Shown here: in pieces, positions 38,451-58,300 of the stretch
Position numbering within the stretch: position 1 is the stretch's first letter
Layout of the letters: each line of letters starts with the position of its first letter
Assembly (NCBI GenBank): GCA_002794735.1
Contig: NBAZ01000003.1
Span: forward strand, 744,001-808,000
Length of the DNA: 64,000 bases
Reading direction: 5' to 3'
Origin: Pyrrhoderma lamaoense
Lineage: Eukaryota > Basidiomycota > Agaricomycetes > Hymenochaetales > Hymenochaetaceae
Program-made: the position numbers and the translations under genes
The notes under the pieces: model-generated
The model's database searches: none
The model's input: the letters and a program-made list of their open reading frames with translations, nothing else
What the model was told of the DNA's origin: nothing

Positions 38451-40231
38451 CTTTGAAATGAATCTGTCATTTGAACCTCCTCGACTGCTATTCTATATAT
38501 ACTTATACTACTTTTGTAGTATATTCAGCCAAGTAATTTTGACCAAAGTGTACACTATAACGGAATATTACAGGTGCGGGGGCTCTTGTAAAGAAGTTTA
38601 CTCTTACTTGTTATTGTGTAAGCAAAGATATTAGATTCAAAGTCAAGCTTTAGTACTATCTATAGTACTATCTCATATTATATTCGTTATTCACACCCAG
38701 ACTCATTGACTACGTGCACGGAGTATATGCTGGTGCCTCTCTTACTTTTGAAGAGTCTGTTAGTCAACGACACAGAATAAGTAACGAAGAACTCGTGCCT
38801 CATGAAAGGGCCTCCACCAATCATTCTCTCAAAATGAGTATATCGGCCGTGCTACTGCTGCTTTCAATGACCCGTCAAAAACATAACGTTAGAATACTCC
38901 TATCATCGTGGTCGATAATGACATTACCTCACTTTGAAGTTGATAAAATTGCAATGCTCTGAAGTTGATGACAAAGGCAGGCTCTAGAAGGCACAATAGC
39001 ATATATCCAATACTTACCTACGAGGGTTCTATTCTTAAACAGGTATATCGTCTTGAGTCTATCATTTTGTCTATTCTCAAGATGGAGGTCAGTATAACCA
39101 CTTCCTTTCATATATTATGCGTCTCTTTGCTTTCACCCTCCAGCGATTAAAGTAGTACTTCCGTAGTTCTTGCTTGTCGTTCTCGTAGTTAAGAAACTGG
39201 ATTGACAAGATTACAGAAAAGTCCTCTTAGAGTATATGTATGTATATTTTCCAGACGCATTATACACAAGTTTTCTAGCTACGATTCCTAATCGTCGAAA
39301 AGACTATAACTCATAGTGGTTGACGGTCAGCCTAAGACCATGTACCGTTATGACGGTATTATAATTGCCTGAAGTAAGTGTCAGCCTCAACCAAGAAGTT
39401 AAGACATTCATTGTTTTAATTGGCCTTCCCGTGAAAAGACGTACACGAATCTCAACTAGCAACCATACAAGCAAGTAAGTCACAGCTTCCTCATATGGTT
39501 ACACGAACGAGTTCGAAACGATAGATATATCGTATATTGTGATCTCCATCTTAGATGCATATCAGAAGCCAGCGACGATGCTTGTAGCCTGACGAATCTT
39601 GTATAACGCTTGTTCCGAAGTTATATGGACTACCAAAGCATCCAAATAAAGCTTCCCAGGAACGAGTGGCAACTACTGAATCAGCTGATGTGGAGACGAA
39701 CCTTGAGGTTGTCCATGTTATAGCGAGGCACCCTCTTTTCGGTAGTATTTCGATACCAAAGGGTGCTTTGGACTGGAAAGTAGTAAGATGTTATAGTCAG
39801 GACTTCATAAGATCAAAGGGGTAATTTCTTCCGAAGTTTAAATTGAGATCGTCCATTGACATGTACGTAATCAAAATGAGTAATGATGACGATGCAACGG
39901 TATGTGACAAATACGCATGGCTCGCCCACGCAAGTGGTTTCAGAAATACCACATTTCAGTGACTCATACATATCATAAAACACACCATAAAAACAGTAAT
40001 TACATCGATAAGCTGATTCATTCATTTGAAAATAAAACATACAAAAGATGAGGTAAAAACATAAATGTCATCAACGAAAAGGCCGTCCCCATGAAATGCA
40101 ATTTGTCAGTGGATTCAGTCCCAGTAATACAAACGAAGGCCGCAAAAATACAGAGGGTATAACCAAAGTGAAAGAGGCAAGGTATAGAGCAAGAAACCCA
40201 GAAAATAAAAGGGAAGATACTCGTAGTAAAG
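38451..40231. other. Intergenic, no gene seen
   Basis: About 1.8 kb with short ORFs only (for example 38714-38962). I could not connect them into a gene of recognisable family. Confidence 0.4.
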
Positions 40232-41438
40232 TTAACTTTCGTTACTGAGCACATACTCAATGTCCTTCTCAAGTTTACTCTCATCAAACGCCTTTTTGAA
40301 GGTTAAACGATGTTTTTTCGGAACGATAAATACAACCTTCTCAAAAGAACCTCCGAATCTTGATCCTTGACCACATAGTAACTCAGCCCAGATGCTGCCA
40401 ATCATTTCAGGAGAGTTACAGGACTGACCGACCCCGAAAGCGCCTAGGATCAGTACCTTGTCACCGTGTTCTTCAAAGAGGCGAAGTGCGCGAGCCATGC
40501 GAGTACGCATAACATGTCTGACACCTTCTTCGCGTTCTGTTTCCTCTAATTTAAACTTTGCACGTACGGTCTCAGCGTTGACTGGGACACAAGATACTAC
40601 ATTAATCAGATAAGGTGGGATATTACGTCCGCAATCGTCCTTGATTACAGATACTCCAGGGCTGTAAAGCATTGCATGATCGTGTAAGCCAGAGTGATCT
40701 GTAGTCTTACGATGTTCCATGTAGAACGCTTTACCAGCGTCCGATGATTGCAGGGAATCGATGAGGGTGGATTGACGTACAAGACACTCTTCAAGGGTAC
40801 AACCACCACTGAGGCTTGCCCCACCAGGCTTCTTGGGTGACACGGGATTAAGTATTCCTAAAGTAAGTGGATGAGTCTTCAAGTAAGTACAATTTAAGCT
40901 CTCTCTCCGAGCAGCCTTAAGTACGGAAAGACTTGAAATCTGATATTTAGGGTGGAAGATGTGGCGATGAGTGGGAAGGTTTCAAGTGTAGAAGAAGGTG
41001 TATCCTTCGGCGTATCTAACGGTATTCTCCTCTCCCACAGTGCGAGAGACGGTAAGAAACGAGAGTAAAATACTGTCTCTTTACGGTGTTAAGGATGCTA
41101 TCCTCAAGATTGTGGTGCCTTGCCTTGGATTGTTCTGGAGCTGGGGAAGTTAGAGAACGAGTTTCTTCATCCGAGTCGCTAAAAACGTCTTCTGTATACT
41201 CGCGCTTGAGGAGGGCAATTTCGAATGTGTCTCTCGTCGTCGAAGCAAGACGGCCACGAAATATACGAAGGTCCCTGAAATTATTTCTTCCTCTGTTTCT
41301 GAAGCTGCCCTTGTTAGCTTGGGCATCCAAGGCTGCTTGTTGGCGATCACGATTTCGACGATAAAACCGATTGCGTTTGCTACCTGTCTTTGATGGATCA
41401 GTTTTCATCTTTCTTGAATGTAGTGGACCTATGTGCAT
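40232..41438 (-). CDS. Microbial-type PARG-like protein (DUF2263/TIGR02452 fold)
   Basis: The large exon (about 40882-40232) matches the macrodomain-like PARG family of bacteria and fungi in order: LGILNPVSPKKPGGASLSGG, the signature region CTLEECLVRQSTLIDSL, HDHAMLYSPGVSVIKDDCG, INVVSCVPVNAETV, DKVLILGAFGVGQSCNSPEM and FEKVVFIVPKK. The upstream exon carries the N-terminal helix RGRLASTTRDTFEIALLKREY. The classic GGG-x6-8-QEE signature is altered: PGGA replaces PGGG and LEE replaces QEE, although both glutamates remain. Splicing between about 41090 and 40930 is not resolved. Known relatives remove ADP-ribose polymers or bind ADP-ribose; activity here is uncertain. The start could also be Met at 41408. 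TAA at 40232-40234. Confidence 0.72.
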
Positions 41439-42992
41439 CGACGACGCTGGTGTTTGATTAGTGAGCAAGAACAAAAGAGGACTATGAACTGTCCTGAAAA
41501 ACAGAATAATTGCGTAAGGCAGTGCAGTCACGTGTAAGGAGGTTGTGGGTTCGACCTGAACTCATTGCTTGAGGGCCATAGAAAAAGAACGACATTAGTA
41601 TTCTGCTTCATTGATGGAAGAATGTCTATGGCTCAGAATTATGGCTCACATACTAGCTGACCCTTACTCAGAGTTTTGAGCCTGATGGAGAACTCTCTGA
41701 TTCAACAGTCTGGTATAACGCACTACATAATGATTCAGTTTTGGGCTCTTTTTATCGCTGGTATACTAAAAAACCACGGTATGCTCTTTATCAGTACTAC
41801 TATGACGATAGTATTCGGCATATCACAATCTTTCATCGATGAGGAATTAACCTATTGAAGATGAGCATGAAAAAGAATTGGCAATGGCGTCAGTAATATT
41901 CTATCAATACAAAAAAAGTAGCTCACGAGCCATTCGATCGTAAGTATTTTTTTTGTATTGTTGTGTCTCGCAGAATATTCCTACAATAACTAGGAACGGG
42001 CTCGTAGTACTCGAATCTCTATCTGCTCGTGACTCGGGTGGTGTCTTCATTGTCTTCATTCAAATTCTCTCTTAAATTCATCGTACCGCTCAAATGAACG
42101 GATACGCAGTACTAGTTACTGAGATACGTTTGGGATACCTCATTTGCTGACCTATGTTGTATTCTTCAACATGGGATAATCTACTTGGTACGTTCTCGTG
42201 CGGGTCGAAGCTCTTTGGTCTCGATTCTTCTATGCTTCTGACGTACCGTCAACCTTTGGAGAAGCAAACCATCCGGAATACATAACGCTTGGATTGGAAG
42301 CTCCAAGACAAACCTCCTGTAGCCATTGAAGACTTTCCTCGTCTACGTGCACAGAAAAACACTGCCTTTATACCTTGATTCATCTGAAACCAACCACCTT
42401 GTAGCACCTGTTCTGATGGATATGGGTTGATCAGTAACTATGCTAGAGGAGTGCATACGCATATCAGTGGAATATGGGTCAATGACAAATAATAATGAAC
42501 TGACTATATAGATATTAGTGACGGACGGACAGACTGTAAGAATTCTGATAGGCGACATCAACTCGAAGATTTGGTAAGGGAGAAGAACATTTGGTCGCAG
42601 CTCAATCAGAAGCTCGCTTAATAATGCAGTCAAAAAAGATATTTGTGAATGGATTAATGGACAGGGGCGCGAAATAAAGCACATAGAATGCTCACGAAAC
42701 GACTGATAACGAGAGTAAGAGGTTGCGGTGTTATTTGATTCAGAATCTCTTCATCCACGTGAAGTTGACAATCAACCGCAGCAGCAAACTTAGCGCATAA
42801 TCTTCACTTGAAATTATGCGCTGACACACAAATAGGAAAATCGTAAAGTTACAGACAAATACGCGGATATATTTTGTATTGAAAACCAAATCAGCGTCTA
42901 CACAACTGTACATGTACATCACCTAAGTATGCTACCTGACAAAAAGGCTCTTTTCGTGTACGAACACCATCCATCAGAGTATAGGACCCTTC
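41439..42992. other. Intergenic, flank of the inverted repeat
   Basis: About 1.5 kb with no convincing gene. Short ORFs on both strands have no recognisable content. Confidence 0.4.
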
Positions 42993-43131
42993 TAATATCA
43001 TAGCCCGCGCACAAGACAACATGTAGAATGAAACAAGCCTATGCATAGACAACCTGCATCAGAAGTCAACCTCGCTTCTCTCCATATGAAGGAGAGTAAG
43101 ACCCACTAATAGTACTGTCCTCAGCACAGAT

Positions 43132-43202
43132 GTGACGGGCCCGGCCCATGCACGCTTGTTGCCATAAACCCGTGCATCAGGCACTCCCACCCCTCCCGTC
43201 AC
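43132..43202 (-). ncRNA. Hairpin module M4, left arm
   Basis: Outer stem GTGACGGG/CCCGTCAC; inner stem ATGCACG/CGTGCAT; loop constants GGGTTTATGG and ACAAG. Compared with its right-arm partner the innermost pair is G-C instead of G-U, so pairing is kept. Confidence 0.75.
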
Positions 43203-43383
43203 TTGCAACCTGATAGACATCCCTGCAAAGATAGCCAAGAGACAAAGGTGGTACTCACCACCACCCCTTACATACTTGCCCATCATCATTGACGTCTGAA
43301 AGACCTGCAGCAGCAGTTAAGGTCATTACTCTCCATGTGAATGAGAGTAAGACTCACCTTTATCTTGTATGATAACGAGATAA

Positions 43384-43455
43384 GTGACGGGCCCGGCCCT
43401 ATGCATGCTTGTAACCATAAACCCACGCACAAGACACTCCCACCCCTCCCGTCAC
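43384..43455 (-). ncRNA. Hairpin module M3, left arm
   Basis: Same outer stem; inner stem TGTGCGTG/CATGCATA formed with two G-U wobbles; same constant loop. Confidence 0.75.
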
Positions 43456-43996
43456 CTACGACCTTGTGAAGAGACCTGCAAAGAAAGTTAGAAGAAGAGG
43501 GCGGATCCCGCCACCACCCCTTACCGACCACACCGTCATTCGAAAATGTCTAGAAATAAAGAAGAATGATGATCGTTGCGATACTAGGGTACACGAATTC
43601 AGTGCAGAGAGAAAGAGAAGTAAGAGAAATACTGGACATCCGATCTTGAGGTACTTGAGTGTTGAGCGCGCTTGAGGATTGAGTTTATACTAAAGGTTAG
43701 TGATCTGAATAGATGCGGCGCTGTGTAAAGGAGAGTGTGCAAAGAGAGAGAACGAAAGAGGTAAGTTGAAGCGATCGAGCAAGGGAGACACACCACAGTC
43801 CTTTCCGCACTCCACCGTAGTTGATACTGATGTTGCTGTTATGAGACTTGAAGTTATAAACCGCCATTTCTTGATATTCCGGTATTAGTGGGGCTCTCGT
43901 ATGCAACCCTGGGTAACAGGGAGTAGGTGAGGGAAGGAAGAGAAGGAAAGTGAAGTAAGCCGGAGACTCACTATGAATGGTATCTTCAACATAAAG

Positions 43997-44069
43997 GTGA
44001 CGGGCCCGACCCATGTACGCTTGTATACCCATAAACCCGTACATGAAGCACTCCCACCCCTCCCGTCAC
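43997..44069 (-). ncRNA. Hairpin module M2, left arm
   Basis: Same outer stem; inner stem CATGTACG/CGTACATG, eight Watson-Crick pairs; loop has one extra G before TATACAAG. Confidence 0.75.
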
Positions 44070-44191
44070 CTAGAACCTATTGTCGTATCTGTAATATAAA
44101 AGCTTAGTAGAAGAGGGCAGTTCCCACCACCACCCTTACCGACCACACTTATCGTCACAGACGTCTAGAAAAAAAAAAAATAAAAGTAAAA

Positions 44192-44221
44192 GATGCGATG
44201 CGATGCGATGCGATGCGATGC
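44192..44221 (-). repeat. GATGC microsatellite, left arm
   Basis: Six tandem GATGC units just upstream (in the minus direction) of the M2 microexon. The right arm has five copies at the mirrored place. Confidence 0.85.
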
Positions 44222-44984
44222 TGAATGAACGAGATCAATGCAGAAAAGAAAGGGCATAAGAGAATTACTAGGCACGCCTTTGTCTAATTTGAGATTGCGA
44301 ATCCGGGGTATTGCAGTGTTGAGCGTGCTTGAGTGTTTAACCATCATTTCACATAAATAGTATAAATAAATCCAATGCTGGGTATCGGGGTTGATGCAAG
44401 AGAAAAGAGAAACAATGCGATAAATAGCAATAGAGACAAATGATGCTGTGTATACGAGTCAACGCAGAGAGAGGTTGGAGAGAAAAACAAAGCAGAGTAG
44501 ACACACCACCAACGAGTCTTCTTAGGCATTACCGTGACATAGTTGAGGGTGCCGTCTTGAGGCCGAGATTCAAAGGGAGTCTACCTTATTAGAAGTTACT
44601 AGTATGCACGTTAGTAGTACAAATGATTTGTAGTATGGCTTGATGCAAGAATGTGAAAGAGATGGATTGAAATAGATACTCATAAGCATAAATAATGCAA
44701 GGAAAGCAGTATGCGAAGTAAAATGCGGAAAGAGAAGAAAAAGCAAAATGAGAATTGAAAGCAAATACAACACCTTCGAGTCCTTCTATACTCCATCACG
44801 ATTGTCGATGTTGGCATCTTGAGAACGAGGTCCAGACGATCGGTGCTTGTATTGATCTATAGGCATTAGTAGAGTATATGTATTTATGTATCTAGTCCTG
44901 GGTATCATAGGGCATATGAATAAAAGAGGAGGCTCGGTAGAGAAGATCCGGAGACTCACTATTGATATGTATTGTAAGTGAAAG

Positions 44985-45055
44985 GTGACGGGCCCGACCC
45001 ATGCATGCTTGTTACCATAAACCCATGCACGAAGCACTCCCACCCCTCCCGTCAC
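44985..45055 (-). ncRNA. Hairpin module M1, left arm
   Basis: Same outer stem; inner stem CGTGCATG/CATGCATG with one G-U; same constant loop. Confidence 0.75.
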
Positions 45056-46793
45056 CCTAGAGCCGATGGATCGAGCCTGCAAAGAAAAGTTAAAAGATAA
45101 TGTGGTTCCCACCTCCACCCCTTACCGGCCACACCTATCGTCACAGACGTCTAGAACAAACTAAAAGAGATCGATAGATGCGATGCTCGAGAATACGAGG
45201 TCAATGCAGTGAGAAAGAGAAAAGTGAGAATTACTGGGATGTCTCGCCGCCGTCGCCCTCACACACCACCTTTGTCTAGACTCATATAATGGGTGGTCGA
45301 GATACTGAGACCCTGAGCGTTGGGGTCGAGAAGATGAAATCTGTCAACTCAGAGAGAGAACAGAGAAGGCAGTGAAACAGAGTAGACACACCAATGCAAA
45401 GAGACAATGTCAAAAGGAAGGCACGGTTGTTTATGTTGCTGTCTTGAGGCACACATTCATGTTCAGAGGTTTAAGATGCCGGGGATCACACAGCTAGCTC
45501 ACACATCAGTAACACACAAAACGAAAACGCTGAGCATAAGGAGACGAGTCAGTGTTAGTGAGGGAAAGGAGAACACGATAGCCCACCACCACAAGTTGCC
45601 GATCGAGCTATAGATCTTGAAACCACAGTATCGGTAGTTGAGGATATCATGAGATGTCAAAGAGGCATAAGTCCTAGCTGAAGAGATCAAGGCAGAGTGA
45701 TAACGAATGAGACAGGCTGACGACCCACCACGACCCAAACATTCCGTCAATCTTAATTGGGTATATGGTATTCTTGAGGACTTGGGGTGGACATGAAAAT
45801 TTAAATAGATTTAAAAATAATTGGGGTGCTGGTGCAGGTCAATGCAAAGATATATTAAAGAATGAGTAGAGAATAAGTACAGGGCAGACCCACCGCCTCT
45901 ACTGCATCACCTGCTTTGACATTCTTGCCTTGAGATGTTGGGGCGATGAGAGAGCTTGGTCTACCTAATCGCAATCGCATGTGTCAGTACACATAGATAA
46001 GGCGTAAGGAAATCAAGTCACTGAAGAGCAATTATAGGAGAACGACAAATGATAAATAATTTAAATTTGTTGACGTTCTTGAGACGAGTAACATTAAATA
46101 TAATATAGCGATGTGATGCTAGGTATACAGATACGAGTCAACGAGAGAACGAGAGAAAAGAGGGATTGATATCGTGCTCACCACCTCGAAGGCACCTCAC
46201 AGTATCCCCAAGGAGCGGGCGTATTGAAGCCTGTCCATCGGGAACGTCGAGATCTTGAGGAAATAAGTTTGCTTCATGGCTTGCTTGAGGCAAGTAATAA
46301 GGATAAAAATAACGATAGTAGCGAGCCGGAGGTCTAAATCAACGCAGAAAACAAACGGAAAGAAAGAAGAAGAAGAAGAAAACATGGCAATAACCCAACC
46401 ACTTCCCATCACACATCTACCATAAGCTTGATACGCATCGACCGACTCTGAAACTAACTAAAGAACGAGGTTACATGTAACATATAGAGTCAGTGTACAA
46501 CAACAAGGAACACGGGTCATTCAGTATCGGAACAATAAGGCGGATCCCACCACCTCCCCTTGCACGGCACCTTTCTTAATCTTATGTCTCACATGCGTCC
46601 TTGAGGGACGACTTAGAAGTCGTTTCTAATGATCGATCGGAGTTGAGCAAGCCCAACGATAAGAGGAGTCGAGTTGAGTCAGACAAGTGGGAGGCGGACG
46701 CGAGGAAGGGGCAAGAGACTGTGAGAGTAGGTGAGTGGGAGATGATGGGGGAGGAGAAGTTTGGAGTTGGAGATTTTTCGATAAAGAGGAGTC

Positions 46794-46801
46794 CTTTTAT
46801 A
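46794..46801 (-). promoter_or_regulatory. TATA box, left-arm unit
   Basis: TATAAAAG on the minus strand, mirror of the right-arm box. The two units are therefore divergent, with about 3.8 kb between the boxes. Confidence 0.5.
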
Positions 46802-47064
46802 TGATAGATGTAACCCTAGGCTATGTGTCTGTTTGGCCTAAGCACACCCTAAATGTGGAAATAAAAAGACCATCAATGTTTTAGAAGATATAATAAAATA
46901 AAAATACAAGGCGTTTCTAATGGGGTGCCTTAGAATAAGCGAAGAAGCTCAGGGATAAACACGTTTTCTTCCTCAACAGAGTACTTCTAACAAAGAAGGT
47001 TTCAAAAAATGTAGGTGACTACGTATTTGTACGTATTTGCACACCGCCCCTTTGTGGAATCACG

Positions 47065-47256
47065 ATGAGTTCAGGGGTTCCTGGACGCATCCTGGATGCT
47101 AATGGATATTCCAGCGAAAAACATCCCGTACCACCCACCCAGAACAAAATCTCACACAGTCAAGGCCTGTTTTTGAAAGTGCCTTTAACTCTTTGTGTCG
47201 AGCTCCTCCGGACCGAACTATGTTATCTGATTGCTAATAACGACGCCATCAAATAA
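47065..47256 (+). CDS. Possible 63-residue protein, left inner arm
   Basis: ATG-started frame (MSSGVPGRILDANGYSSEKH) ending ANNDAIK. It points toward the core, opposite to the modular transcript. The mirrored frame encodes the same protein. No domain is recognised; it may be chance. Confidence 0.2.
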   Translation: MSSGVPGRILDANGYSSEKHPVPPTQNKISHSQGLFLKVPLTLCVELLRTELCYLIANNDAIK

Positions 47257-48410
47257 TGGGTGTTCACATTCTGAGACATTTCACGCGGAGTACATGAGTG
47301 GAGTATAGGTACCTGGTGCACTACCCTTGGGTAAGCACCTTCTTGTAAGTCGATAGGCTAGTTATGAGCAAGCAACTGAAATGGAGTGTGCAACTCCCCT
47401 GAGCCAGCGACACGTAAGTTTATGATGTATGTTGTACGTGTGCAAGTGCGAAGCGCATATAACCGTATGCATCCAAGAATTTATAAGTAAATAAATCATA
47501 CCCACTCTTTCCATATTCTATTTAGAGATAGCAATTTATGTTCCATCCCAAAAACTGGGTTACCTATTTGCTGACGGATAAGTAAATGGAATATCAGGGG
47601 AGGAACTATAGGCGGCTTATTTTACCCTATCTGATTGTTCTGCTATGCGAGCCTCTAGGTACTCGTGATGAGCTCTCCCTCCTAGTTATAGGAATGTCCC
47701 TTATTTTACTACCAACGACCTCCCGCCACCAACTCCCGCCTCATAGATATGTTTGCGTCCAGTGAATCCACACTATCTCATAGTGCCCTTTGAGTGATGC
47801 GTGTCAATGAGCAATGTATGTTACAAGCTGGAGATTCAATAAGGACGTATGCGAGACTCCCCTTACTTTCGGAAGGCAAGAAATATGGGCACCACTACCA
47901 TCATTAGTTTTCCGAATTACTATTTTGGGACACAAAGGAAAATACGAAACGACATCGATTCAGGGTAGGGTGTAATAAGCCGAGATTTCCGATTTAATAT
48001 CAACTAATCTCCTATTTTTTTACTGGGACAAAAAAGAAACCCATTCCTTCATGGGTAGCAACCAGTTTTCAGACTTGGTGGTTTGATGGTTCGCACACCG
48101 AAACGCTCAGATCGTAGATCTGGTAAGTTCCTCGAGCTAAATAGAAGCTTCTAAAAGAAGCTTTCGCTTGGAAGCAAATTCAACTACTCGTAATTGTGAT
48201 TTCATAAACCTCACCTTATGCTGTGTCGTAAACTGGCTTCATAATTTATAATTTTTCGGATGTAGAATATTTTGAGATTGTACTCATAAAGCGAAGACTC
48301 GCCTTGAAGATATTTCAAACCTTCTTTTTTGCATCAAACTGATTTACTGCGATAGGATAATGGGGTGCAATGGACATCACGAGCCCGTGTGAACGTATGA
48401 ACGTGACATG

Positions 48411-49034
48411 TGCAACCTCATAATGAATATTAATTCAAACGGGAATATATACCCGTACATGTGCCCTCTTTCAATACTTCGTCACACAGTGTCACAATGC
48501 TGTATATTATTTTTTATAGTCGCGAAATTCGCTTAACTAGTACATCTTATATTAGAATCTAGGAAAGTTGATCAATTTTGTCACTCGCTGTCACTATCGT
48601 TTTATTTTCTTGATAAGTCAACGAAATAATTTTTTTAAAGCATGAAAATAATTATGAAGTTATTTTTGTATCTATATATATTATATATAAAGTTATATAG
48701 AAAGTTAATGAGAAAAATAATTTTATAATTGTAGTTTCTCATATATATGTTGTCCTACATCTGTGTATATGCTAATTTTCTATTTAATTAATATTATTTT
48801 GATGATAATTTTTACATAATCTTGATTAATCAGTAAAAACATATTTTTGTGCCAAATTTTGAATAGAGTTTATTTGTATAACGTTGAGAAATATCGAGTT
48901 TGAAAGAGGGTACACTTTGAAAGAAGGGCACGTGTACGGTAAGGATGCCGAGGACTACAACTGACATTTCCGTATTTAGCAATTCCGTTCCAAAGGTTTT
49001 TTCCAAATTAGCTTCGCTAATCGAGTATCTGTTT
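48411..49034. other. AT-rich unique core between the arms
   Basis: 624 bp with no counterpart on the other side. It is markedly AT-rich, with runs such as TATATATATTATATATAAAG near 48673 and long A/T tracts. No ORF of note lies within it. It could be an origin, a centromere-like core or simply the loop left by the duplication event. The sequence alone does not decide. Confidence 0.8.
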
Positions 49035-50188
49035 CATGTCACGTTCATACGTTCACACGGGCTCGTGATGTCCATTGCACCCCATTATCCTATCGCAGTA
49101 AATCAGTTTGATGCAAAAAAGAAGGTTTGAAATATCTTCAAGGCGAGTCTTCGCTTTATGAGTACAATCTCAAAATATTCTACATCCGAAAAATTATAAA
49201 TTATGAAGCCAGTTTACGACACAGCATAAGGTGAGGTTTATGAAATCACAATTACGAGTAGTTGAATTTGCTTCCAAGCGAAAGCTTCTTTTAGAAGCTT
49301 CTATTTAGCTCGAGGAACTTACCAGATCTACGATCTGAGCGTTTCGGTGTGCGAACCATCAAACCACCAAGTCTGAAAACTGGTTGCTACCCATGAAGGA
49401 ATGGGTTTCTTTTTTGTCCCAGTAAAAAAATAGGAGATTAGTTGATATTAAATCGGAAATCTCGGCTTATTACACCCTACCCTGAATCGATGTCGTTTCG
49501 TATTTTCCTTTGTGTCCCAAAATAGTAATTCGGAAAACTAATGATGGTAGTGGTGCCCATATTTCTTGCCTTCCGAAAGTAAGGGGAGTCTCGCATACGT
49601 CCTTATTGAATCTCCAGCTTGTAACATACATTGCTCATTGACACGCATCACTCAAAGGGCACTATGAGATAGTGTGGATTCACTGGACGCAAACATATCT
49701 ATGAGGCGGGAGTTGGTGGCGGGAGGTCGTTGGTAGTAAAATAAGGGACATTCCTATAACTAGGAGGGAGAGCTCATCACGAGTACCTAGAGGCTCGCAT
49801 AGCAGAACAATCAGATAGGGTAAAATAAGCCGCCTATAGTTCCTCCCCTGATATTCCATTTACTTATCCGTCAGCAAATAGGTAACCCAGTTTTTGGGAT
49901 GGAACATAAATTGCTATCTCTAAATAGAATATGGAAAGAGTGGGTATGATTTATTTACTTATAAATTCTTGGATGCATACGGTTATATGCGCTTCGCACT
50001 TGCACACGTACAACATACATCATAAACTTACGTGTCGCTGGCTCAGGGGAGTTGCACACTCCATTTCAGTTGCTTGCTCATAACTAGCCTATCGACTTAC
50101 AAGAAGGTGCTTACCCAAGGGTAGTGCACCAGGTACCTATACTCCACTCATGTACTCCGCGTGAAATGTCTCAGAATGTGAACACCCA

Positions 50189-50380
50189 TTATTTGATGGC
50201 GTCGTTATTAGCAATCAGATAACATAGTTCGGTCCGGAGGAGCTCGACACAAAGAGTTAAAGGCACTTTCAAAAACAGGCCTTGACTGTGTGAGATTTTG
50301 TTCTGGGTGGGTGGTACGGGATGTTTTTCGCTGGAATATCCATTAGCATCCAGGATGCGTCCAGGAACCCCTGAACTCAT
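50189..50380 (-). CDS. Possible 63-residue protein, right inner arm
   Basis: Identical in translation to the left-arm frame at 47065-47256. In this inner zone the arms barely differ, so identity alone is not evidence of selection. Confidence 0.2.
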   Translation of the reverse strand: MSSGVPGRILDANGYSSEKHPVPPTQNKISHSQGLFLKVPLTLCVELLRTELCYLIANNDAIK

Positions 50381-50642
50381 CGTGATTCCACAAAGGGGCG
50401 GTGTGCAAATACGTACAAATACGTAGTCACCTACATTTTTTGAAACCTTCTTTGTTAGAAGTACTCTGTTGAGAAGAAAACGTGTTTATCCCTGAGCTTC
50501 TTCGCTTATTCTAAGGCACCCCATTAGAAACGCCTTGTATTTTTATTTTATTATATCTTCTAAAACATTGATGGTCTTTTTATTTCCACATTTAGGGTGT
50601 GCTTAGGCCAAACAGACACATAGCCTAGGGTTACATCTATCA

Positions 50643-50650
50643 TATAAAAG
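50643..50650 (+). promoter_or_regulatory. TATA box, right-arm unit
   Basis: TATAAAAG followed by a CT-rich tract (about 50680-50760), the usual fungal promoter-plus-leader pattern. It is the mirror of 46794-46801. Confidence 0.5.
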
Positions 50651-52390
50651 GACTCCTCTTTATCGAAAAATCTCCAACTCCAAACTTCTCCTCCCCCATC
50701 ATCTCCCACTCACCTACTCTCACAGTCTCTTGCCCCTTCCTCGCGTCCGCCTCCCACTTGTCTGACTCAACTCGACTCCTCTTATCGTTGGGCTTGCTCA
50801 ACTCCGATCGATCATTAGAAACGACTTCTAAGTCGTCCCTCAAGGACGCATGTGAGACATAAGATTAAGAAAGGTGCCGTGCAAGGGGAGGTGGTGGGAT
50901 CCGCCTTATTGTTCCGATACTGAATGACCCGTGTTCCTTGTTGTTGTACACTGACTCTATATGTTACATGTAACCTCGTTCCTTTAGTTAGTTTCAGAGT
51001 CGGTCGATGCGTATCAAGCTTATGGTAGATGTGTGATGGGAAGTGGTTGGGTTATTGCCATGTTTTCTTCTTCTTCTTCTTTCTTTCCGTTTGTTTTCTG
51101 CGTTGATTTAGACCTCCGGCTCGCTCCTATCGTTATTTTTATCCTTATTACTTGCCTCAAGCAAGCCATGAAGCAAACTTATTTCCTCAAGATCTCGACG
51201 TTCCCGATGGACAGGCTTCAATACGCCCGCTCCTTGGGGATACTGTGAGGTGCCTTCGAGGTGGTGAGCACGATATCAATCCCTCTTTTCTCTCGTTCTC
51301 TCGTTGACTCGTATCTGTATACCTAGCATCACATCGCTATATTATATTTTAATGTTACTCGTCTCAAGAACGTCAACAAATTTAAATTATTTATCATTTG
51401 TCGTTCTCCTATAATTGCTCTTCAGTAACTTGATTTCCTTACGCCTTATCTATGTGTACTGACACATGCGATTGCGAATAGGTAGACCAAGCTCTCTCAT
51501 CGCCCCAACATCTCAAGGCAAGAATGTCAAAGCAGGTGATGCAGTAGAGGCGGTGGGTCTGCCCTGTACTTATTCTCTACTCATTCTTTAATATATCTTT
51601 GCATTGACCTGCACCAGCACCCCAATTATTTTTAAACCTATTTTAATTTTCATGTCCACCCCAAGTCCTCAAGAATACCATATACCCAATTAAGATTGAC
51701 GGAATGTTTGGGTCGTGGTGGGTCGTCAGCCTGTCTCATTCGTTATCACTCTGCCTTGATCTCTTCAGCTAGGACTTATGCCTCTTTGACATCTCATGAT
51801 ATCCTCAACTACCGATACTGTGGTTTCAAGATCTATAGCTCGATCGGCAACTTGTGGTGGTGGGCTACCGTGTTCTCCTTTCCCTCACTAACACTGACTC
51901 GTCTCCTTATGCTCAGCGTTTTCGTTTTGTGTGTTACTGATGTGTGAGCTAGCTGTGTGATCCCCGGCATCTTGAACCTCCTGAACATGAATGTGTGCCT
52001 CAAGACAGCAACATAAACAACCGTGCCTTCCTTTTGACATTGTCTCTTTGCATTGGTGTGTCTACTCTGTTTCACTGCCTTCTCTGTTCTCTCTCTGAGT
52101 TGACAGATTTCATCTTCTCGACCCCAACGCTCAGGGTCTCAGTATCTCGACCACCCATTATATGAGTCTAGACAAAGGTGGTGTGTGAGGGCGACGGCGG
52201 CGGACATCCCAGTAATTCTCACTTTTCTCTTTCTCACTGCATTGACCTCGTATTCTCGAGCATCGCATCTATCGATCTCTTTTAGTTTGTTCTAGACGTC
52301 TGTGACGATAGGTGTGGCCGGTAAGGGGTGGAGGTGGGAACCACATTATCTTTTAACTTTTCTTTGCAGGCTCGATCCATCGGCTCTAGG

Positions 52391-52461
52391 GTGACGGGAG
52401 GGGTGGGAGTGCTTCGTGCATGGGTTTATGGTAACAAGCATGCATGGGTCGGGCCCGTCAC
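52391..52461 (+). ncRNA. Hairpin module M1, right arm
   Basis: 71 nt. GTGACGGG at the start pairs with CCCGTCAC at the end. CGTGCATG (52415-52422) pairs with CATGCATG (52439-52446). The 5' internal loop is G-rich (AGGGGTGGGAGTGC). It lies inside the 117-nt exon 52370-52486. Confidence 0.78.
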
Positions 52462-53223
52462 CTTTCACTTACAATACATATCAATAGTGAGTCTCCGGAT
52501 CTTCTCTACCGAGCCTCCTCTTTTATTCATATGCCCTATGATACCCAGGACTAGATACATAAATACATATACTCTACTAATGCCTATAGATCAATACAAG
52601 CACCGATCGTCTGGACCTCGTTCTCAAGATGCCAACATCGACAATCGTGATGGAGTATAGAAGGACTCGAAGGTGTTGTATTTGCTTTCAATTCTCATTT
52701 TGCTTTTTCTTCTCTTTCCGCATTTTACTTCGCATACTGCTTTCCTTGCATTATTTATGCTTATGAGTATCTATTTCAATCCATCTCTTTCACATTCTTG
52801 CATCAAGCCATACTACAAATCATTTGTACTACTAACGTGCATACTAGTAACTTCTAATAAGGTAGACTCCCTTTGAATCTCGGCCTCAAGACGGCACCCT
52901 CAACTATGTCACGGTAATGCCTAAGAAGACCCGTTGGTGGTGTGTCTACTCTGCTTTGTTTTTCTCTCCAACCTCTCTCTGCGTTGACCGTATACACAGC
53001 ATCATTTGTCTCTATTGCTATTTATCGCATTGTTTCTCTTTTCTCTTGCATCAACCCCGATACCCAGCATTGGATTTATTTATACTATTTATGTGAAATG
53101 ATGGTTCAACACTCAAGCACGCTCAACACTGCAATACCCCGGATTCGCAATCTCAAATTAGACAAAGGCGTGCCTAGTAATTCTCTTATGCCCTTTCTTT
53201 TCTGCATTGATCTCGTTCATTCA

Positions 53224-53248
53224 GCATCGCATCGCATCGCATCGCATC
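53224..53248 (+). repeat. GCATC microsatellite, right arm
   Basis: Five tandem GCATC units, the mirror of the six-copy left-arm repeat. The copy difference shows that the two arms were read independently. Confidence 0.85.
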
Positions 53249-53374
53249 TTTTACTTTTATTTTTATTTTTATTTCTAGACGTCTGTGACGATAAGTGTGG
53301 TCGGTAAGGGATGGTGGTGGGAACTGCCCTCTTCTACTAAGCTTTTATATTACAGATACGACAATAGGTTCTAG

Positions 53375-53448
53375 GTGACGGGGGGGGGTGGGAGTGCTTC
53401 ATGTACGGGTTTATGGGTATACAAGCGTACATGGGTCGGGCCCGTCAC
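53375..53448 (+). ncRNA. Hairpin module M2, right arm
   Basis: 74 nt. Inner stem CATGTACG/CGTACATG: relative to M1, C-G becomes U-A and U-A becomes C-G, two compensatory changes. The G-rich loop here is a run of nine Gs, then T, then GGG. Confidence 0.78.
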
Positions 53449-53989
53449 CTTTATGTTGAAGATACCATTCATAGTGAGTCTCCGGCTTACTTCACTTTCC
53501 TTCTCTTCCTTCCCTCACCTACTCCCTGTTACCCAGGGTTGCATACGAGAGCCCCACTAATACCGGAATATCAAGAAATGGCGGTTTATAACTTCAAGTC
53601 TCATAACAGCAACATCAGTATCAACTACGGTGGAGTGCGGAAAGGACTGTGGTGTGTCTCCCTTGCTCGATCGCTTCAACTTACCTCTTTCGTTCTCTCT
53701 CTTTGCACACTCTCCTTTACACAGCGCCGCATCTATTCAGATCACTGACCTTTAGTATAAACTCAATCCTCAAGCGCGCTCAACACTCAAGTACCTCAAG
53801 ATCGGATGTCCAGTATTTCTCTTACTTCTCTTTCTCTCTGCACTGAATTCGTGTACCCTAGTATCGCAACGATCATCATTCTTCTTTATTTCTAGACATT
53901 TTCGAATGACGGTGTGGTCGGTAAGGGGTGGTGGCGGGATCCGCCCTCTTCTTCTAACCTTCTTTACAGGTCTCTTCACAAGGTCGTAG

Positions 53990-54061
53990 GTGACGGGAGG
54001 GGTGGGAGTGCCTTGTGCGTGGGTTTATGGTTACAAGCATGCATAGGGCCGGGCCCGTCAC
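53990..54061 (+). ncRNA. Hairpin module M3, right arm
   Basis: 72 nt. Inner stem TGTGCGTG/CATGCATA with G-U wobbles. One base longer than M1 on the 3' side, which breaks the reading frame but not the pairing. Confidence 0.78.
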
Positions 54062-54242
54062 TTATCTCGTTATCATACAAGATAAAGGTGAGTCTTACTC
54101 TCATTCACATGGAGAGTAATGACCTTAACTGCTGCTGCAGGTCTTTCAGACGTCAATGATGATGGGCACGTATGTAAGGGGTGGTGGTGAGTACCACCTT
54201 TGTCTCTTGACGATCTTTGCAGGGATATCTATCAGGTTGCAA

Positions 54243-54313
54243 GTGACGGGAGGGGTGGGAGTGCCTTATGCACGGGTTTATGGCAACAAGTGTGCATGGG
54301 CCGGGCCCGTCAC
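54243..54313 (+). ncRNA. Hairpin module M4, right arm
   Basis: 71 nt. Inner stem ATGCACG/TGTGCAT; the outer stem is perfect. It is the outermost copy and the most diverged from its left-arm partner, yet still paired. Confidence 0.75.
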
Positions 54314-54678
54314 ATCTGTGCTGAGGACAGTACTATTAGTGGGTCTTACTCTCCTTCATATGGAGAGAAGCGAGGTTGACTTCTGATGCAGGTTGTCTAT
54401 GCATAGGCTTGTTCCATATTACATGTCGTCTTGTCTGGGGCTATGGTATTACGCCTCGTCTTTATGTTAGTAAGAAGAGTGAAAGGTCAAAGCACTTTTG
54501 TTGTTGAAGAAAAGTAAAGCTTGAACGTACATGTAGTAGACGTTTTACTAATAATATATCTCGCTTCCTATCATGAAATAAGATTTATGTCGAGTATACT
54601 GAGCGTCGGAGTGTGAATAACAAAGAAAAATCATGGACAGAGTAAGTTGATACCTCAAGTTTTCTTTCTCTTCTGCAA

Positions 54679-54996
54679 TCACACGGAGAATCGAAAAGTG
54701 TTTTGGATTTTGAATTGTTCCTTTTCATAGAATAGTAGCGATATAGTATTATGGGGATTTGTGGAAGATAGTTGATAAATACCAATGTTCAGATAAAAGT
54801 CCACGAAAAGCAAAAAAGCCGGCAATACAGAAATATGAATTGTGATAGACAAAGGGATGGAAACTACGACGGATGCATTGCCAGTCTCCATAAAAATTGT
54901 TGAAGCCTGTGGCGAGTGAAAATCAGATGGTGTTGATTTGGTAAAAATTACGAGTATATAGTTCTTTGGAGAAAGTTGTAAGATCAAGCTAGTCAT
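54679..54996 (-). CDS. Fragment of an AIG1/FAR-17a-like membrane protein (weak)
   Basis: The frame contains SIPLSITIHISVLPAFLLFV followed by DFYLNIG, which resembles the conserved H-x-x-P-x-x-x-x-x-x-D-F membrane segment of fungal AIG1-like proteins. The N-terminal part and the C-terminal exons are not clear. The expected C-terminal half would fall next to the outer edge of the inverted repeat (54451), so the gene may be truncated there. This family call is a guess from one segment. Confidence 0.3.
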   Translation of the reverse strand: MTSLILQLSPKNYILVIFTKSTPSDFHSPQASTIFMETGNASVVVSIPLSITIHISVLPAFLLFVDFYLNIGIYQLSSTNPHNTISLLFYEKEQFKIQNTFRFSV

Positions 54997-55110
54997 AAGC
55001 TACTTCATCCACTTACATGGGTATGAGTAACTGGCCAAGGCTGAAGTAGTCACAACGAGTGTACACGCTCACAGAGCGAGTGGAATTAGTCGATCATTGT
55101 CATGGGTCAT

Positions 55111-55399
55111 TCAACAATTGCTGGGATCCCTTCATCCGTCGGAGAACCGCGTAGTTTGTATCCCAACCAAAACATGAAAGCTATGAAAAGCAGAAGAGCA
55201 GCGCGTTGCCATTTGGGAGGCGTCGGAAGATCAAAGCGGGGGTCATGGATGAAAGCAACGTGTGCAGGTGAAGGTATGTTTATCCTTGTTCTTCCGATTG
55301 AGGCTTCTTCCTCCCGAGGTCGAAGACGCTAGTAGATCTCTGACCCGGAACGTCCTCTCTTCTGGGAGATGTTGGGAGTCGTTCATATTGTGATGGCAT
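55111..55399 (-). CDS. Small single-pass membrane protein with a frame break
   Basis: The ATG at 55399 gives MPSQYERLPTSPRRED, then RSTSVFDLGRKKPQSEEQG and an early stop. One base away, the other frame continues INIPSPAHVAFIHDPRFDLP then TPPKWQRAALLLFIAFMFW and LGYKLRGSPTDEGIPAIVE to TGA at 55111. The whole reads as one protein of about 95 residues: a disordered Ser/Arg start, an HDPRFDLPTP linker and one membrane helix near the end. The break is near 55282 and no intron explains it. No function is assigned. Confidence 0.45.
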
Positions 55400-58300
55400 C
55401 ACTACCTATGCTATAGATGAGTAAAGAGTGACTTCTAGTTCGATATATACCCGTTCTGAGTAGTAGAGCAAGTAAAGGTGTGCTTTGGATAGTGCCCCTG
55501 AGCGTGTCGCCAGGCTGACAGTCACGCAGGTCTTCATTCTCCCACTGTGACTCTCAAGCGCGTGTTACACCGTTACGTTATGTTACTTTGTTTGTATTGA
55601 TAGGTCAACTTGTCAACTCATACTACTATTGTGTGATGTATGAGCCGTAGACTTTATTCTTCCTTCCCATGTCACAGGGACCTCAAGTTTGTGCTTGTAG
55701 CCTACTCACTCATCAGTCACTATATCACACTTGAAACAGTTCTTTACTGTTATGCTACCTGGAACCACATCATAGTATCTTGTCTTTCATTTTTCCAATT
55801 TTCTGATCGTTATAGAAAGTCGTGGCCCGATAATGAGCCAGGACAGCCTGCCTGAGACTGATCATCTCCACGGGAATTTTCTACTTTGATATCATCTTAT
55901 AACGATATGATTAGTAAAAAACCACACTCTGTGCGCTTCGTGCGTCACCGGGCCACTCGTCGAAGAGAAAAAGAAGTATCATTCAGAAATTCATTCATCA
56001 GACTAGCGGATGGAATAACTGAGTGTGGGTAAGTGCTATGAGTTTCCTGTAAGACTTGTTGGGATGCCTTAATGTGGGAGAAGACAGGACCAAGTTTTGT
56101 CTGAAAAAATCCTGTTCTATCCCTTCTACTTATCTAGAAATGGATACGTCAAGGTCTTCTAGATTAGCTATGGGTCCTTCAACTATTCGTGATGTCCTGC
56201 ATATTTGAAGTCACAAGCACTTCTTAGGCTGATTAGACCTAAAGGGCAGACACGGAGACGTTCTAATTCTGGGATTGATACAAACTGTGAGAGGTTTCCC
56301 TTACTTGAAAAGAATAATTTCCTTCACAGTCTTACTGGGAAATCCCACTGTTTGGGAGGGTGGCATGCATTTTTCTTTTATGAGATGTAGGGCATCTCAA
56401 AGGAATTTTGGGATAAGGGATGAATGAAATCAGATCGCGGACATTTCAAAAATCACCAACGAGAAAGGTTGAAGGATTTCGTATAGGTGGAGGGCATCGT
56501 GATCCGATTCATTTCTAACATCTCATGATCAAGGAAGGAGTCGCCCATGGTCTTACTTAAACATGAACAGGTATTCAATCATTTCTGGGGTGGGAGTGGG
56601 TCCGATGAACAATGAATGTCAGACAGAAAGCTCTTAAGTCAAGGGAGTGAAAATATGAACATATATTCACTCTGATTTTCTATATTATTGGTAATCGTGA
56701 GATTATCGAGTTTATCCCAAATTCTGGTTGGGAGTAGCCTTTGAAATAGGGGGAAAGTGCTCAGATGGGTGCTGATTTGCCTATAAAGTCTGAAGAGCTG
56801 CATCTCAAGTCATACACTTATCTGACTCATAGCCTCTTCTATGACACTGACATTTCTGCGCCTAATCCAGACGTCGTAAGGAGGTCGTATCGTTACTTAT
56901 GATTTTCAGGCTTTGATATAGCCCTTCGTCACTCGTTTACTCATCTCTAGCGAGAGCTCCAGGTTATGGCCATTCTACCTGCTGGATAAAATCAAAGAAT
57001 ACGTGTTTGGGATCAGACATGTTTCTGATTCGCCTCTGTGAAGTACTGATACTTCAAAATTACTAAGTATATACATGTTTTTAGGCCTGTCTTGTTATGC
57101 ATAGATGTTACGAACTCGAGAAATGGCTCCAAACTCTGTCAACAAATATCCATTACCCATATGCATTCCGGCCACGTTGTCAACTAAAGGTCTTTCCTCT
57201 AGAGACTTTCGTTGCCTAGCCCTTGCTTGAATATGTTGAATTTGGCTTTTTTGGTTTGCTTCTATACGTGTATATCAGGAAACTAGATCAGCGGTAGAGA
57301 AAAGATATTGAACGGTTCTCACTTCTTTGATCCATTTTTGCCCAAATCGCCAACCCTTCTTCTTGTCAACGGTTTCTGTCGGTTTTAATAGCGTTCCCGC
57401 ATTGGCCACATCGGCGATCCAGCGCCTTATCCTAGGGTGCTCTGCTGCAAACTCCTCATCTATTTCGACTACAATCTTTCTTTCGCGATTCACGAACAGG
57501 CGAGCCAATCTTGTGAGAGCTGTTGCATATCCATTAGTTGAGATTGGAAGTGTAAATAGGGAGAGAAAGAGTATGCGCACGGTTGGACATGATTATCGAA
57601 ATGAGTCTATAAATAAAATACTTCGAAGGAATGGACGTTTTGGTTTGAGACAAGATGTGGTCGTATGGGTGGTTGTAGTATTGTTCGGACAACTATGAAA
57701 GCTCAGCTTAAGTAATCTGGTCCTTTGTTTTTTGTGCACTACGGGAACAATAGACACAAAGAACAGTTGATTGTTCACCGGGGCAGTATAGCTATTCTGC
57801 GTTGCCTATTTATCAGAAAATGTTATCTTAGATTGGAATGGAATGAATTTATCTTTCTTTTCAATTGTGCGCATTGCCGCGATTTAAGCCCCTATTTATC
57901 TATGTGTATATATTTACATGTATTCATATTGTAAACAAAATCACTATACTGCTATGTATATCATTTCTCATAGTCCTTTTTTGTCGTGATCTTTTGTAAA
58001 AGAAAAAGAAAAGATAAGACAAAATCAATTGCAAGCAAATCATGCATTGTTCCTGACACGCTTCCTTCGCCGCGCTAGCCCACTTGTCACAAGAGTGAGA
58101 CTGACTGGCTCATTAACTGGTGTGTCAGACGAATATCATAACAAAACGATCGGTTAGCAGTCTGTCTCAGAAATTACCTTCAGACTGAGCCCATCGGCTA
58201 TGGCTCATCTCACGCTCATGGAAATATCGATATGTTTATGAGCCACAGAAAACTGCGCAGTTTTCTGTACGCGAACATTTATGGCAGACTCCATCTTAAA

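What the first reader, a model, noticed from the sequence alone, without database searches (positions are those of the whole stretch)
43132..54313. New hairpin RNA family with compensatory base changes (4 modules x 2 arms)
Eight copies share an 8-bp outer stem GTGACGGG/CCCGTCAC and constant loop parts GGTTTATGG and ACAAG. Their inner stems read CGTGCATG, CATGTACG, TGTGCGTG and TATGCACG and stay paired: position 5 shows C-G to U-A, position 7 shows U-A to C-G, and other changes use G-U. One-base length changes disrupt the reading frame but not the stems. This pattern indicates selection on structure.
Basis: seen in the sequence. Interest (0 to 1): 0.93.

Follow-up and report, generated by a model that had tools for sequence, protein, structure and literature searches.

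The report
Repeated hairpins in fungal non-coding gene
In a basidiomycete fungus, a mirror-image pair of apparently non-coding, intron-rich genes each carries four copies of a 71-base RNA hairpin that stayed nearly unchanged while the DNA around it drifted apart, which suggests an undescribed structured RNA whose partner and job still have to be found.

Summary
Eight copies of a 71-74 nt hairpin lie at 43132-54313, inside two inverted 5.4-kb arms that differ by 25 substitutions and 16 indel columns and were found nowhere else in the 30.65-Mb genome. The eight copies are therefore four independent modules seen twice. The seven inner-stem pairs hold in 49 of 49 cells and two change on both sides, but with four modules this is modest evidence (exact permutation p = 0.042). 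Conservation is stronger evidence: the hairpin is 88% identical between modules, the rest of the same predicted exon 40-41%. No frame is shared and summed codon scores are negative in every frame. Intron signals favour the outward strand (10 candidates against 0 inward), the strand on which wobbles read G-U; the intron detector did poorly on known genes. Best reading: a spliced non-coding RNA with four hairpin domains, probably multivalent protein-binding sites with an invariant G-rich core. Rival: the hairpin is itself an intron overlapping the next donor (stwintron-like). No relative was found; other fungal genomes could not be searched. Transcription and function are inferred, not shown.

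The parts
43011..48410 (-). left palindrome arm (outward direction is the - strand)
   Evidence: about 99% identical inverted copy of 49035-54434; whole-genome search with the right arm finds these two places only
49035..54434 (+). right palindrome arm (outward direction is the + strand)
   Evidence: similarity trails on to about 54451
48411..49034 (.). 624-bp spacer between the arms
52391..52461 (+). hairpin c1, right arm (71 nt)
53375..53448 (+). hairpin c2, right arm (74 nt)
53990..54061 (+). hairpin c3, right arm (72 nt)
54243..54313 (+). hairpin c4, right arm (71 nt)
44985..45055 (-). hairpin c1, left arm (identical to right c1)
43997..44069 (-). hairpin c2, left arm (73 nt)
43384..43455 (-). 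hairpin c3, left arm (72 nt)
43132..43202 (-). hairpin c4, left arm (71 nt)
50643..50649 (+). TATA box (TATAAAA), likely promoter of the right transcript; 50626-50633 just upstream reads TAGGGTTA
   Evidence: sequence; inferred
46795..46801 (-). mirror TATA box of the left transcript
   Evidence: sequence; inferred
52321..52369 (+). predicted intron A of module c1
   Evidence: lax list; GTAAGGGG...CAG aligned in the four modules; not in the strict list
53304..53355 (+). predicted intron A of module c2
   Evidence: not in the strict list
53921..53969 (+). predicted intron A of module c3
54174..54222 (+). predicted intron A of module c4 (alternative donor 54170)
52487..52589 (+). predicted intron B of module c1 (alternative ends 52548, 52554)
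   Evidence: not in the strict list
53474..53536 (+). predicted intron B of module c2
   Evidence: not in the strict list
54088..54140 (+). predicted intron B of module c3
   Evidence: not in the strict list
54339..54391 (+). predicted intron B of module c4
   Evidence: not in the strict list
52370..52486 (+). predicted hairpin exon c1, 117 nt
53356..53473 (+). predicted hairpin exon c2, 118 nt
53970..54087 (+). predicted hairpin exon c3, 118 nt
54223..54338 (+). predicted hairpin exon c4, 116 nt
50660..53810 (+). stretch with older, strongly diverged repeated units marked by CTCAAG (13 copies, about 1 expected) and GGTGGTG

Best explanation
Each arm of the palindrome holds one outward-transcribed, intron-rich, non-coding RNA gene. 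Its 3' half carries four tandem modules, each being intron A, a short exon with the hairpin, and intron B. In the spliced RNA the four hairpins would stand as separate small domains: an invariant 8-bp outer helix, an asymmetric internal loop rich in invariant G-runs, a 7-bp inner helix whose sequence may vary if it stays paired, and an apical loop with invariant GGGUUUAUGG and ACAAG. I propose that each domain is a binding site for one RNA-binding protein, so that the transcript works as a multivalent scaffold or decoy, and that arm-to-arm gene conversion keeps the two genes alike. Shown by computation: the hairpins, their conservation against the flanks, the absence of a shared coding frame, a strand bias of intron-like signals, the palindrome. 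Inferred: transcription, splicing, exonic position, gene conversion, protein binding, function.
For: Mean identity between the four modules is 0.88 in the hairpin (59 of 74 columns invariant), 0.41 and 0.40 in the 5' and 3' remainder of the same exon, 0.69 in intron A. The seven inner pairs hold in 49 of 49 cells on the outward strand and 43 of 49 on the opposite strand. Sliding the partner by 1-3 columns drops pairing of the whole structure to 15-54%. Strict intron candidates: 10 on the outward strand of the right arm (7 distinct acceptors), 0 on the inward strand, block-Markov null mean 1.9, maximum 7 in 200. All 20 unpaired G columns are invariant and 8 of 24 other unpaired columns vary, Fisher p = 0.005, a grouping chosen after looking. 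Summed codon scores are negative in all three frames over 11 hand-bounded CTCAAG exons, and each of the 12 exon-frame scores of the four hairpin exons is negative, against median best-frame scores of +3.5 to +6.0 in four genes of the window. Exon lengths 117, 118, 118, 116 and module-specific indels. The one hairpin frame searched had 2 candidates and no relative at E up to 10; no Pfam family reached its cut-off in 12 frames of the arm (2, 10). TATA box upstream.
Against: No transcript data. Covariation rests on two pairs and four modules (p = 0.042). The strict intron detector did not prefer the sense strand of known genes (9200-14400: 2 sense, 3 antisense) and listed only two of the eight module introns, A of c3 and c4. 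Stability is unremarkable: z -1.24 to -3.07 for the copies, -1.44 to -2.62 for three opposite strands; over 129 windows per strand of the right arm the outward mean z is +0.21 and the best single window (z -4.14) is on the inward strand, over c2. An open 90-nt frame is present in 71% of outward windows, more than in the other non-coding stretches (33-57%) though less than in genes (85-99%); single CTCAAG exons score up to +4.5 in one frame. With lax donors a spliced frame of 344 codons (287 in the left arm) can be threaded, at the top of 60 Markov controls (mean 159, maximum 346), which had fewer candidate introns (53 against 76). Outer stem and loops are invariant, so a conserved DNA or sequence motif would also fit. 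No copy outside this locus; no other fungal genome could be tested.
Confidence: 0.46

Rival explanations
1. The hairpin is an intron, not an exon: GTGACGGG is a donor, the outer stem brings it close to a branch point in the 3' flank, and the acceptor AG overlaps or abuts the donor of intron B, as in a [D1,2] stwintron or a recursive splice site. The conserved element would then be a regulated, structured internal intron.
For: In the four right-arm copies an AG ends exactly at the next donor (three read TAGTGRGT, one AAAGGTGAGT); the would-be internal introns are 97, 100, 98 and 97 nt; in c1 and c2 the joined donor would read GTGAGTC; YTNA branch-like sites in c1, c2, c4. [quoted passage not shown]
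Against: The donor GTGACG is weak at +5 and +6 (recalled consensus) and is buried in the 8-bp stem. In c4 the joined donor would read ATGGGTC, not a donor; c3 has no YTNA site in the flank. The invariant G-runs and loop are not needed for splicing.
Confidence: 0.15
2. The conservation acts on DNA: the near-palindromic 71-bp unit is a protein-binding or cruciform-forming site, and the paired changes arise by template-switch correction of imperfect inverted repeats.
For: The outer 8-bp arms are perfect inverted repeats in all eight copies; the units sit in a large palindrome with signs of arm-to-arm homogenisation (35 difference events: 0, 1, 7, 4, 9, 14 per 900 bp from centre to edge).
Against: Departures from Watson-Crick pairing are all G-T on the outward strand, none A-C, on the strand favoured by intron signals. 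Independent wobble events are few (about three by my reading), so this is weak.
Confidence: 0.15
3. Decayed or fast-evolving protein gene: the arms are pseudogenes or an intron-rich coding gene with repeated exons, and the hairpin is the best-kept exon.
For: Repeated exon-like units with CTCAAG; a spliced frame of up to 344 codons can be threaded; hairpin exons c1, c3, c4 are open in one, one and two frames; more open 90-nt windows outward than in other non-coding stretches.
Against: c2 has stops in all three frames and no frame is open in all four. Summed codon scores are negative. Better donors leave 126 (right) and 129 (left) codons, or 115 without any intron, and the paths of the two arms agree only in part. 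The hairpin is the conserved piece while the rest of the exon is near saturation. No relatives found for what was searched.
Confidence: 0.08
4. Known RNA class not recognised by the models: a box H/ACA or C/D guide RNA host, a telomerase RNA or a small-RNA precursor.
For: Hairpin with an internal loop; ANANNA-like boxes starting 14 nt after the hairpin in c2, c3, c4, and at 10 and 17 in c1; fungal snoRNA hosts can be non-coding and intron-rich, one with an exon-encoded snoRNA (PMC2780460 passages); a TAGGGTTA motif beside the TATA box.
Against: No Rfam match to a snoRNA, telomerase or small-RNA precursor family at gathering over the window or at E up to 10 over 42500-54900. The pocket lies about 30 nt from the box in c2-c4 instead of 14-16 (rule; positions). 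No rDNA was found in the held assembly, so target pairing could not be tested.
Confidence: 0.07
5. Mobile element: a 71-bp inverted-repeat element (MITE-like or introner-like) inserted repeatedly.
For: Terminal inverted repeats.
Against: No copy found elsewhere in the genome; the copies sit at the same place in homologous modules, 19-21 nt after intron A and 25-26 nt before intron B, and no target-site duplication is seen by eye.
Confidence: 0.03

Closest known systems
roX1/roX2 lncRNAs of Drosophila (repeated roXbox stem-loops)
   Same: Non-coding RNA whose function rests on short repeated stem-loops with a conserved motif, the number of repeats matters, the rest turns over fast (PMC4719309, passages).
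   Different: The roXbox was not searched for here; fungus; protein partner unknown; here the whole hairpin is conserved, in tandem intron-exon modules, in a palindrome. An analogy of design, not membership.
[D1,2] stwintrons with terminal inverted repeats and introner-like elements (Hypoxylaceae and other fungi)
   Same: About 100-nt unit with inverted repeats next to overlapping splice sites (AGT junction) in c1, c2, c4.
   Different: Those are described in many genes of a genome, with imperfect inverted repeats (PMC8469720, passages); here four modules at one locus with fixed loops and G-runs; the donor is weak and c4 does not fit.
Fungal non-coding snoRNA host genes (Neurospora clusters)
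   Same: Intron-rich, short frames only, RNA elements in introns, one in an exon (PMC2780460, passages).
   Different: No snoRNA family match here.
Large palindromes with near-identical arms kept by gene conversion (recalled: primate Y chromosome)
   Same: 5.4-kb arms, 624-bp spacer, divergence rising outward.
   Different: Fungal contig; one presumed non-coding gene per arm.

Membership tests
Structured RNA family (in general) | compensatory changes above background | tested here: inconclusive
   Two pairs with changes on both sides; exact permutation p = 0.042 with four modules. On seven non-independent rows three measures are reached by 1 of 500 shuffles, two by 238 and 500 of 500
Structured RNA family (in general) | match to a described family | tested here: not met
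   Rfam 15: none at gathering over the window; at E up to 10 over 42500-54900 four sub-threshold matches (Histone3 twice, sau-66 twice), none on a hairpin
Protein-coding exon family | one shared open frame, codon bias | tested here: not met
   no frame open in all four copies; codon scores
Box H/ACA snoRNA | H or ACA box 14-16 nt downstream of the target position | tested here: not met
   ANANNA-like boxes in the 3' flank lie about 30 nt from the pocket in c2-c4 and elsewhere in c1 (rule from PMC2780460)
Box H/ACA snoRNA | pairing to rRNA or snRNA | not testable with these tools
   no rDNA found by a primer pattern in the held assembly; Rfam rRNA searches of the genome not answered
[D1,2] stwintron | removal of the internal intron recreates a donor | tested here: inconclusive
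   GTGAGTC in c1 and c2, intact donor behind a G in c3, ATGGGTC in c4
[D1,2] stwintron | two-step splicing seen in RNA | not testable with these tools
   no RNA data
Introner-like element / MITE | many dispersed near-identical copies | tested here: not met
   eight copies, one locus
Repeat-hairpin lncRNA (roX-like design) | non-coding transcript | tested here: inconclusive
   sequence signals only: intron bias with a weak positive control, non-coding codon scores
Repeat-hairpin lncRNA (roX-like design) | repeated stem-loops bound by a protein | not testable with these tools
   repeats shown; binding needs experiment

The most novel reading that the evidence does not exclude
The hairpin is a new kind of repeated RNA domain: two helices stacked on a G-quadruplex-like core made from four invariant G-runs of the internal loop (GGGG and GGG on the 5' side, GGG and GGG on the 3' side), topped by a fixed loop. 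Four such domains per transcript, in two gene-converted mirror-image genes, form a multivalent scaffold or decoy for a G-core-binding protein in Hymenochaetaceae.
Probability: 0.17. Interest if true: 0.82.

Novelty: new variant of a known kind. Interest (0 to 1): 0.55.

Why it matters
To my knowledge (recalled) few fungal long non-coding RNAs have a recognised repeated domain. If this one is transcribed, it gives a compact, testable object: four near-identical domains, a stem that so far changes only with pairing kept, and an invariant G-rich core, in a gene pair that a palindrome seems to keep alike. It would also be a case of a non-coding gene in a gene-converted palindrome in a fungus. If instead the hairpin is an intron sharing its acceptor with the next donor, it bears on how structured and nested introns arise.

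Tried and rejected
Viral contigs: the 21-mer GTGACGGGAGGGGTGGGAGTG gave four IMG/VR contigs; around the match (180 bases printed) all four carry one and the same sequence of 66-67% GC contigs, without CCCGTCAC in the stretch shown: a coincidence. Covariance model R1: over 40000-58000 its only matches with E below 0.01 are the eight copies, seven distinct of which it was built from. The first structure string that I gave to the pair counter was misplaced and was replaced by a computed one. Spliced-frame search: see evidence against and the third rival. Folding scan: the right-arm transcript as a whole is not unusually structured. ViennaRNA with G-quadruplexes changes the fold of one of seven hairpins alone (c2R), of one of three hairpin exons (c1), strongly of introns A of c1 and c3, marginally of c2, not of c4; to my knowledge it cannot place a helix inside a quadruplex, so the novel reading is untested. 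A telomerase RNA and a tRNA-like fold were considered from the sequence and dropped (no match). An inward-strand coding gene was considered: median codon score negative, no strict introns, no Pfam family at its cut-off in the four inward frames given.

Literature: searches. By the titles and abstract beginnings listed, I saw no paper on a repeated hairpin RNA or a non-coding palindrome in Hymenochaetales; most lists were capped (listed of found: 9 of 9, 15 of 19, 10 of 44, 12 of 16, 8 of 35, 6 of 18, 6 of 86, 0 of 0, 5 of 7). Passages were read in PMC4719309, PMC8469720 and PMC2780460, and the outline with abstract of PMC3596301; the others were seen as search listings only. Most subscription journals are not in the library.
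Full report
WHERE IT IS. The window is G000:C3:744001-808000 of a 30.65-Mb, 72-contig genome. The neighbouring gene with a microbial-type PARG domain (40232-40981, - strand) has its best named relatives in Sanghuangporus, Phellinidium, Fomitiporia, Phellopilus and Coniferiporia at 58-64% identity. Sanghuangporus and Phellinidium were looked up and are Hymenochaetaceae. So the host is a Hymenochaetales basidiomycete, probably Hymenochaetaceae; the species is not known.

THE SETTING. The eight hairpins lie in a palindrome: arms 43011-48410 and 49035-54434 with a 624-bp spacer. The arms differ by 25 substitutions (16 transitions) and 16 indel columns in 5408 columns. Grouped into 35 events, the differences rise outward: 0, 1, 7, 4, 9, 14 per 900 bp, and similarity trails off past 54434, to about 54451. 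This looks like an old inverted duplication kept alike by gene conversion that is strongest near the centre; an assembly artefact is less likely but not excluded. The right arm, and its part 50650-51950 alone, each find only themselves and their mirror in the genome.

THE OBSERVATION. GTGACGGG-N45..65-CCCGTCAC is found at eight places in the genome, all here. The 21-base start of the hairpin with up to three mismatches finds seven hairpins and three further places with two or three mismatches, against six matches of the reversed control. A 221-bp module finds eight places, all here, at 78-100% identity. The loop pattern finds eight places, all here, control one. On the seven distinct copies the seven inner pairs hold in 49 of 49 cells. 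Pairs 30-55 and 32-53 change on both sides, pairs 27-58, 31-54 and 33-52 vary by G-U only, two inner pairs and all eight outer pairs never vary. One position further down, column 26, left c4 has G opposite G, so the stem is not perfect in every copy there.

HOW STRONG IS THE COVARIATION? The arms are not independent. With one copy of each of the four modules, the exact probability that all cells pair when 3' letters are permuted within each pair is 0.042, for either choice of arm. On seven rows, of five measures three are reached by 1 of 500 shuffles, and two are unremarkable: pairs changed on both sides (238 of 500) and further pair types (500 of 500). So the base changes alone are suggestive. 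The energies are also modest: z from -1.24 to -3.07 for seven copies; three opposite strands give -1.44 to -2.62.

STRONGER EVIDENCE. Aligned over whole modules (c1R, c2L, c3R, c4R), mean pairwise identity is 0.88 in the hairpin, but 0.41 and 0.40 in the two remainders of the same predicted exon, 0.62 in the exon before, 0.69 in intron A and 0.57 in the start of intron B. The exon flanks are near saturation, so the modules are old, and the hairpin ends mark the ends of conservation. Departures from Watson-Crick pairing on the outward strand are all G-U; read on the opposite strand the same letters pair in 43 of 49 cells. The outward strand is also favoured by intron signals: 10 strict candidates at 7 distinct acceptors outward, 0 inward, against a block-Markov null with mean 1.9 and maximum 7 of 200; other non-coding stretches gave 0 to 3 per strand. 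A control speaks against relying on this too much: on the known genes at 9200-14400 the same detector found 2 on the sense and 3 on the antisense strand, and of the eight module introns it lists only A of c3 and c4; the others come from a laxer list of 76 candidates. All 20 unpaired G columns are invariant while 8 of 24 other unpaired columns vary over the four modules (p = 0.005; the grouping was chosen after seeing the alignment).

IS IT CODING? Predicted hairpin exons are 117, 118, 118 and 116 nt; no frame is open in all four and c2 has stops in all three. Codon log-odds trained on 1751 codons of open frames elsewhere in the window are negative in all 12 exon-frames of the hairpin exons; summed over 11 CTCAAG exons, whose borders I set by hand, they are -47.5, -53.0 and -22.8 in the three frames, although single exons reach +4.4 and +4.5 in one frame. 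Sliding windows in the arm score like non-coding DNA (median -3.7 outward, -4.5 inward; other non-coding stretches -1.5 to -2.6) and unlike four genes (+3.5 to +6.0); those genes overlap the training set, so the contrast is flattering, and 71% of outward windows hold an open 90-nt frame, more than other non-coding stretches (33-57%). Lax splicing permits a 344-codon frame (287 in the left arm), at the edge of 60 controls (maximum 346; the controls had fewer candidate introns); better donors leave 126-129 codons, or 115 without introns, and the paths of the two arms agree only in part. No Pfam family reaches its cut-off in 12 frames of the arm, and the one hairpin frame sought among 5.8 billion proteins had two candidates and no match at E up to 10.

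ANATOMY OF THE GENE. On the right arm a TATA box at 50643 (with TAGGGTTA at 50626) precedes a pyrimidine-rich stretch. Its first part holds strongly diverged repeated units marked by CTCAAG (13 copies, about 1 expected; 3.4 per kb against 0.35 per kb outside the palindrome) and GGTGGTG (9 copies, 0.36 expected). Its last part holds the four hairpin modules: intron A (GTAAGGG to CAG), hairpin exon, intron B (GTGAGTCT or GTGGGTCT). Intron A itself has a small G-rich stem that pairs in 23 of 25 cells over five copies, with a C-G / U-A change at one pair, or alternatively a two-layer G-quadruplex, favoured by ViennaRNA in c1 and c3.

MECHANISM. Most likely each hairpin is a protein-binding domain and the transcript a multivalent scaffold or decoy. 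The pattern of constraint, fixed loops and G-runs with a replaceable but paired inner stem, is what a folded recognition domain would show. The G-runs lie two on each side of the internal loop between the helices, so a quadruplex-like core between two helices is possible; it was not testable here. The main rival is that the hairpin is itself an intron whose acceptor overlaps the donor of intron B: three copies read TAGTGRGT and one AAAGGTGAGT, but c4 would not recreate a donor and c3 lacks a branch-like site.

RELATION TO KNOWN THINGS. Rfam has no match on a hairpin. roX RNAs are the closest design (PMC4719309, passages), stwintrons with inverted repeats the closest splicing analogue (PMC8469720, passages), snoRNA hosts the closest fungal gene type (PMC2780460, passages; PMC3596301, outline and abstract). 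None is claimed as membership.

LIMITS. No RNA data, no other fungal genomes, no rDNA found in the assembly held. Everything about transcription and function is inferred.

Noticed in passing
50660-53810 (right arm, + strand) and its mirror: CTCAAG occurs 13 times (about 1 expected) and CCTCAAG 8 times (0.18 expected) on the outward strand, with CTTGAG absent there; together with GGTGGTG they mark about ten older, strongly diverged exon-intron units.
   Followed up: partly
52321-52369, 53304-53355, 53921-53969, 54174-54222, and 50880-50930: Intron A has its own small G-rich stem right after the donor, with 23 of 25 pair cells kept in five copies and one pair changed on both sides; in c1 and c3 a two-layer G-quadruplex is predicted instead.
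   Followed up: partly
43011-48410 and 49035-54434: Palindrome with divergence rising from centre to edge, as expected of gene conversion between arms.
   Followed up: partly
50626-50633: TAGGGTTA, a telomere-repeat-like motif, sits about 10 bases upstream of the TATA box of the presumed non-coding gene; in yeasts such motifs bind Tbf1 at snoRNA promoters (recalled).
   Followed up: no
54158-54203 (- strand) and 43242-43287 (+ strand): Rfam Histone3 stem-loop matches below the gathering score (24.3 and 26.5 bits against 34; E 0.004 and 0.0006) on the inward strand, over the donor side of intron A of module c4; unexplained.
   Followed up: no
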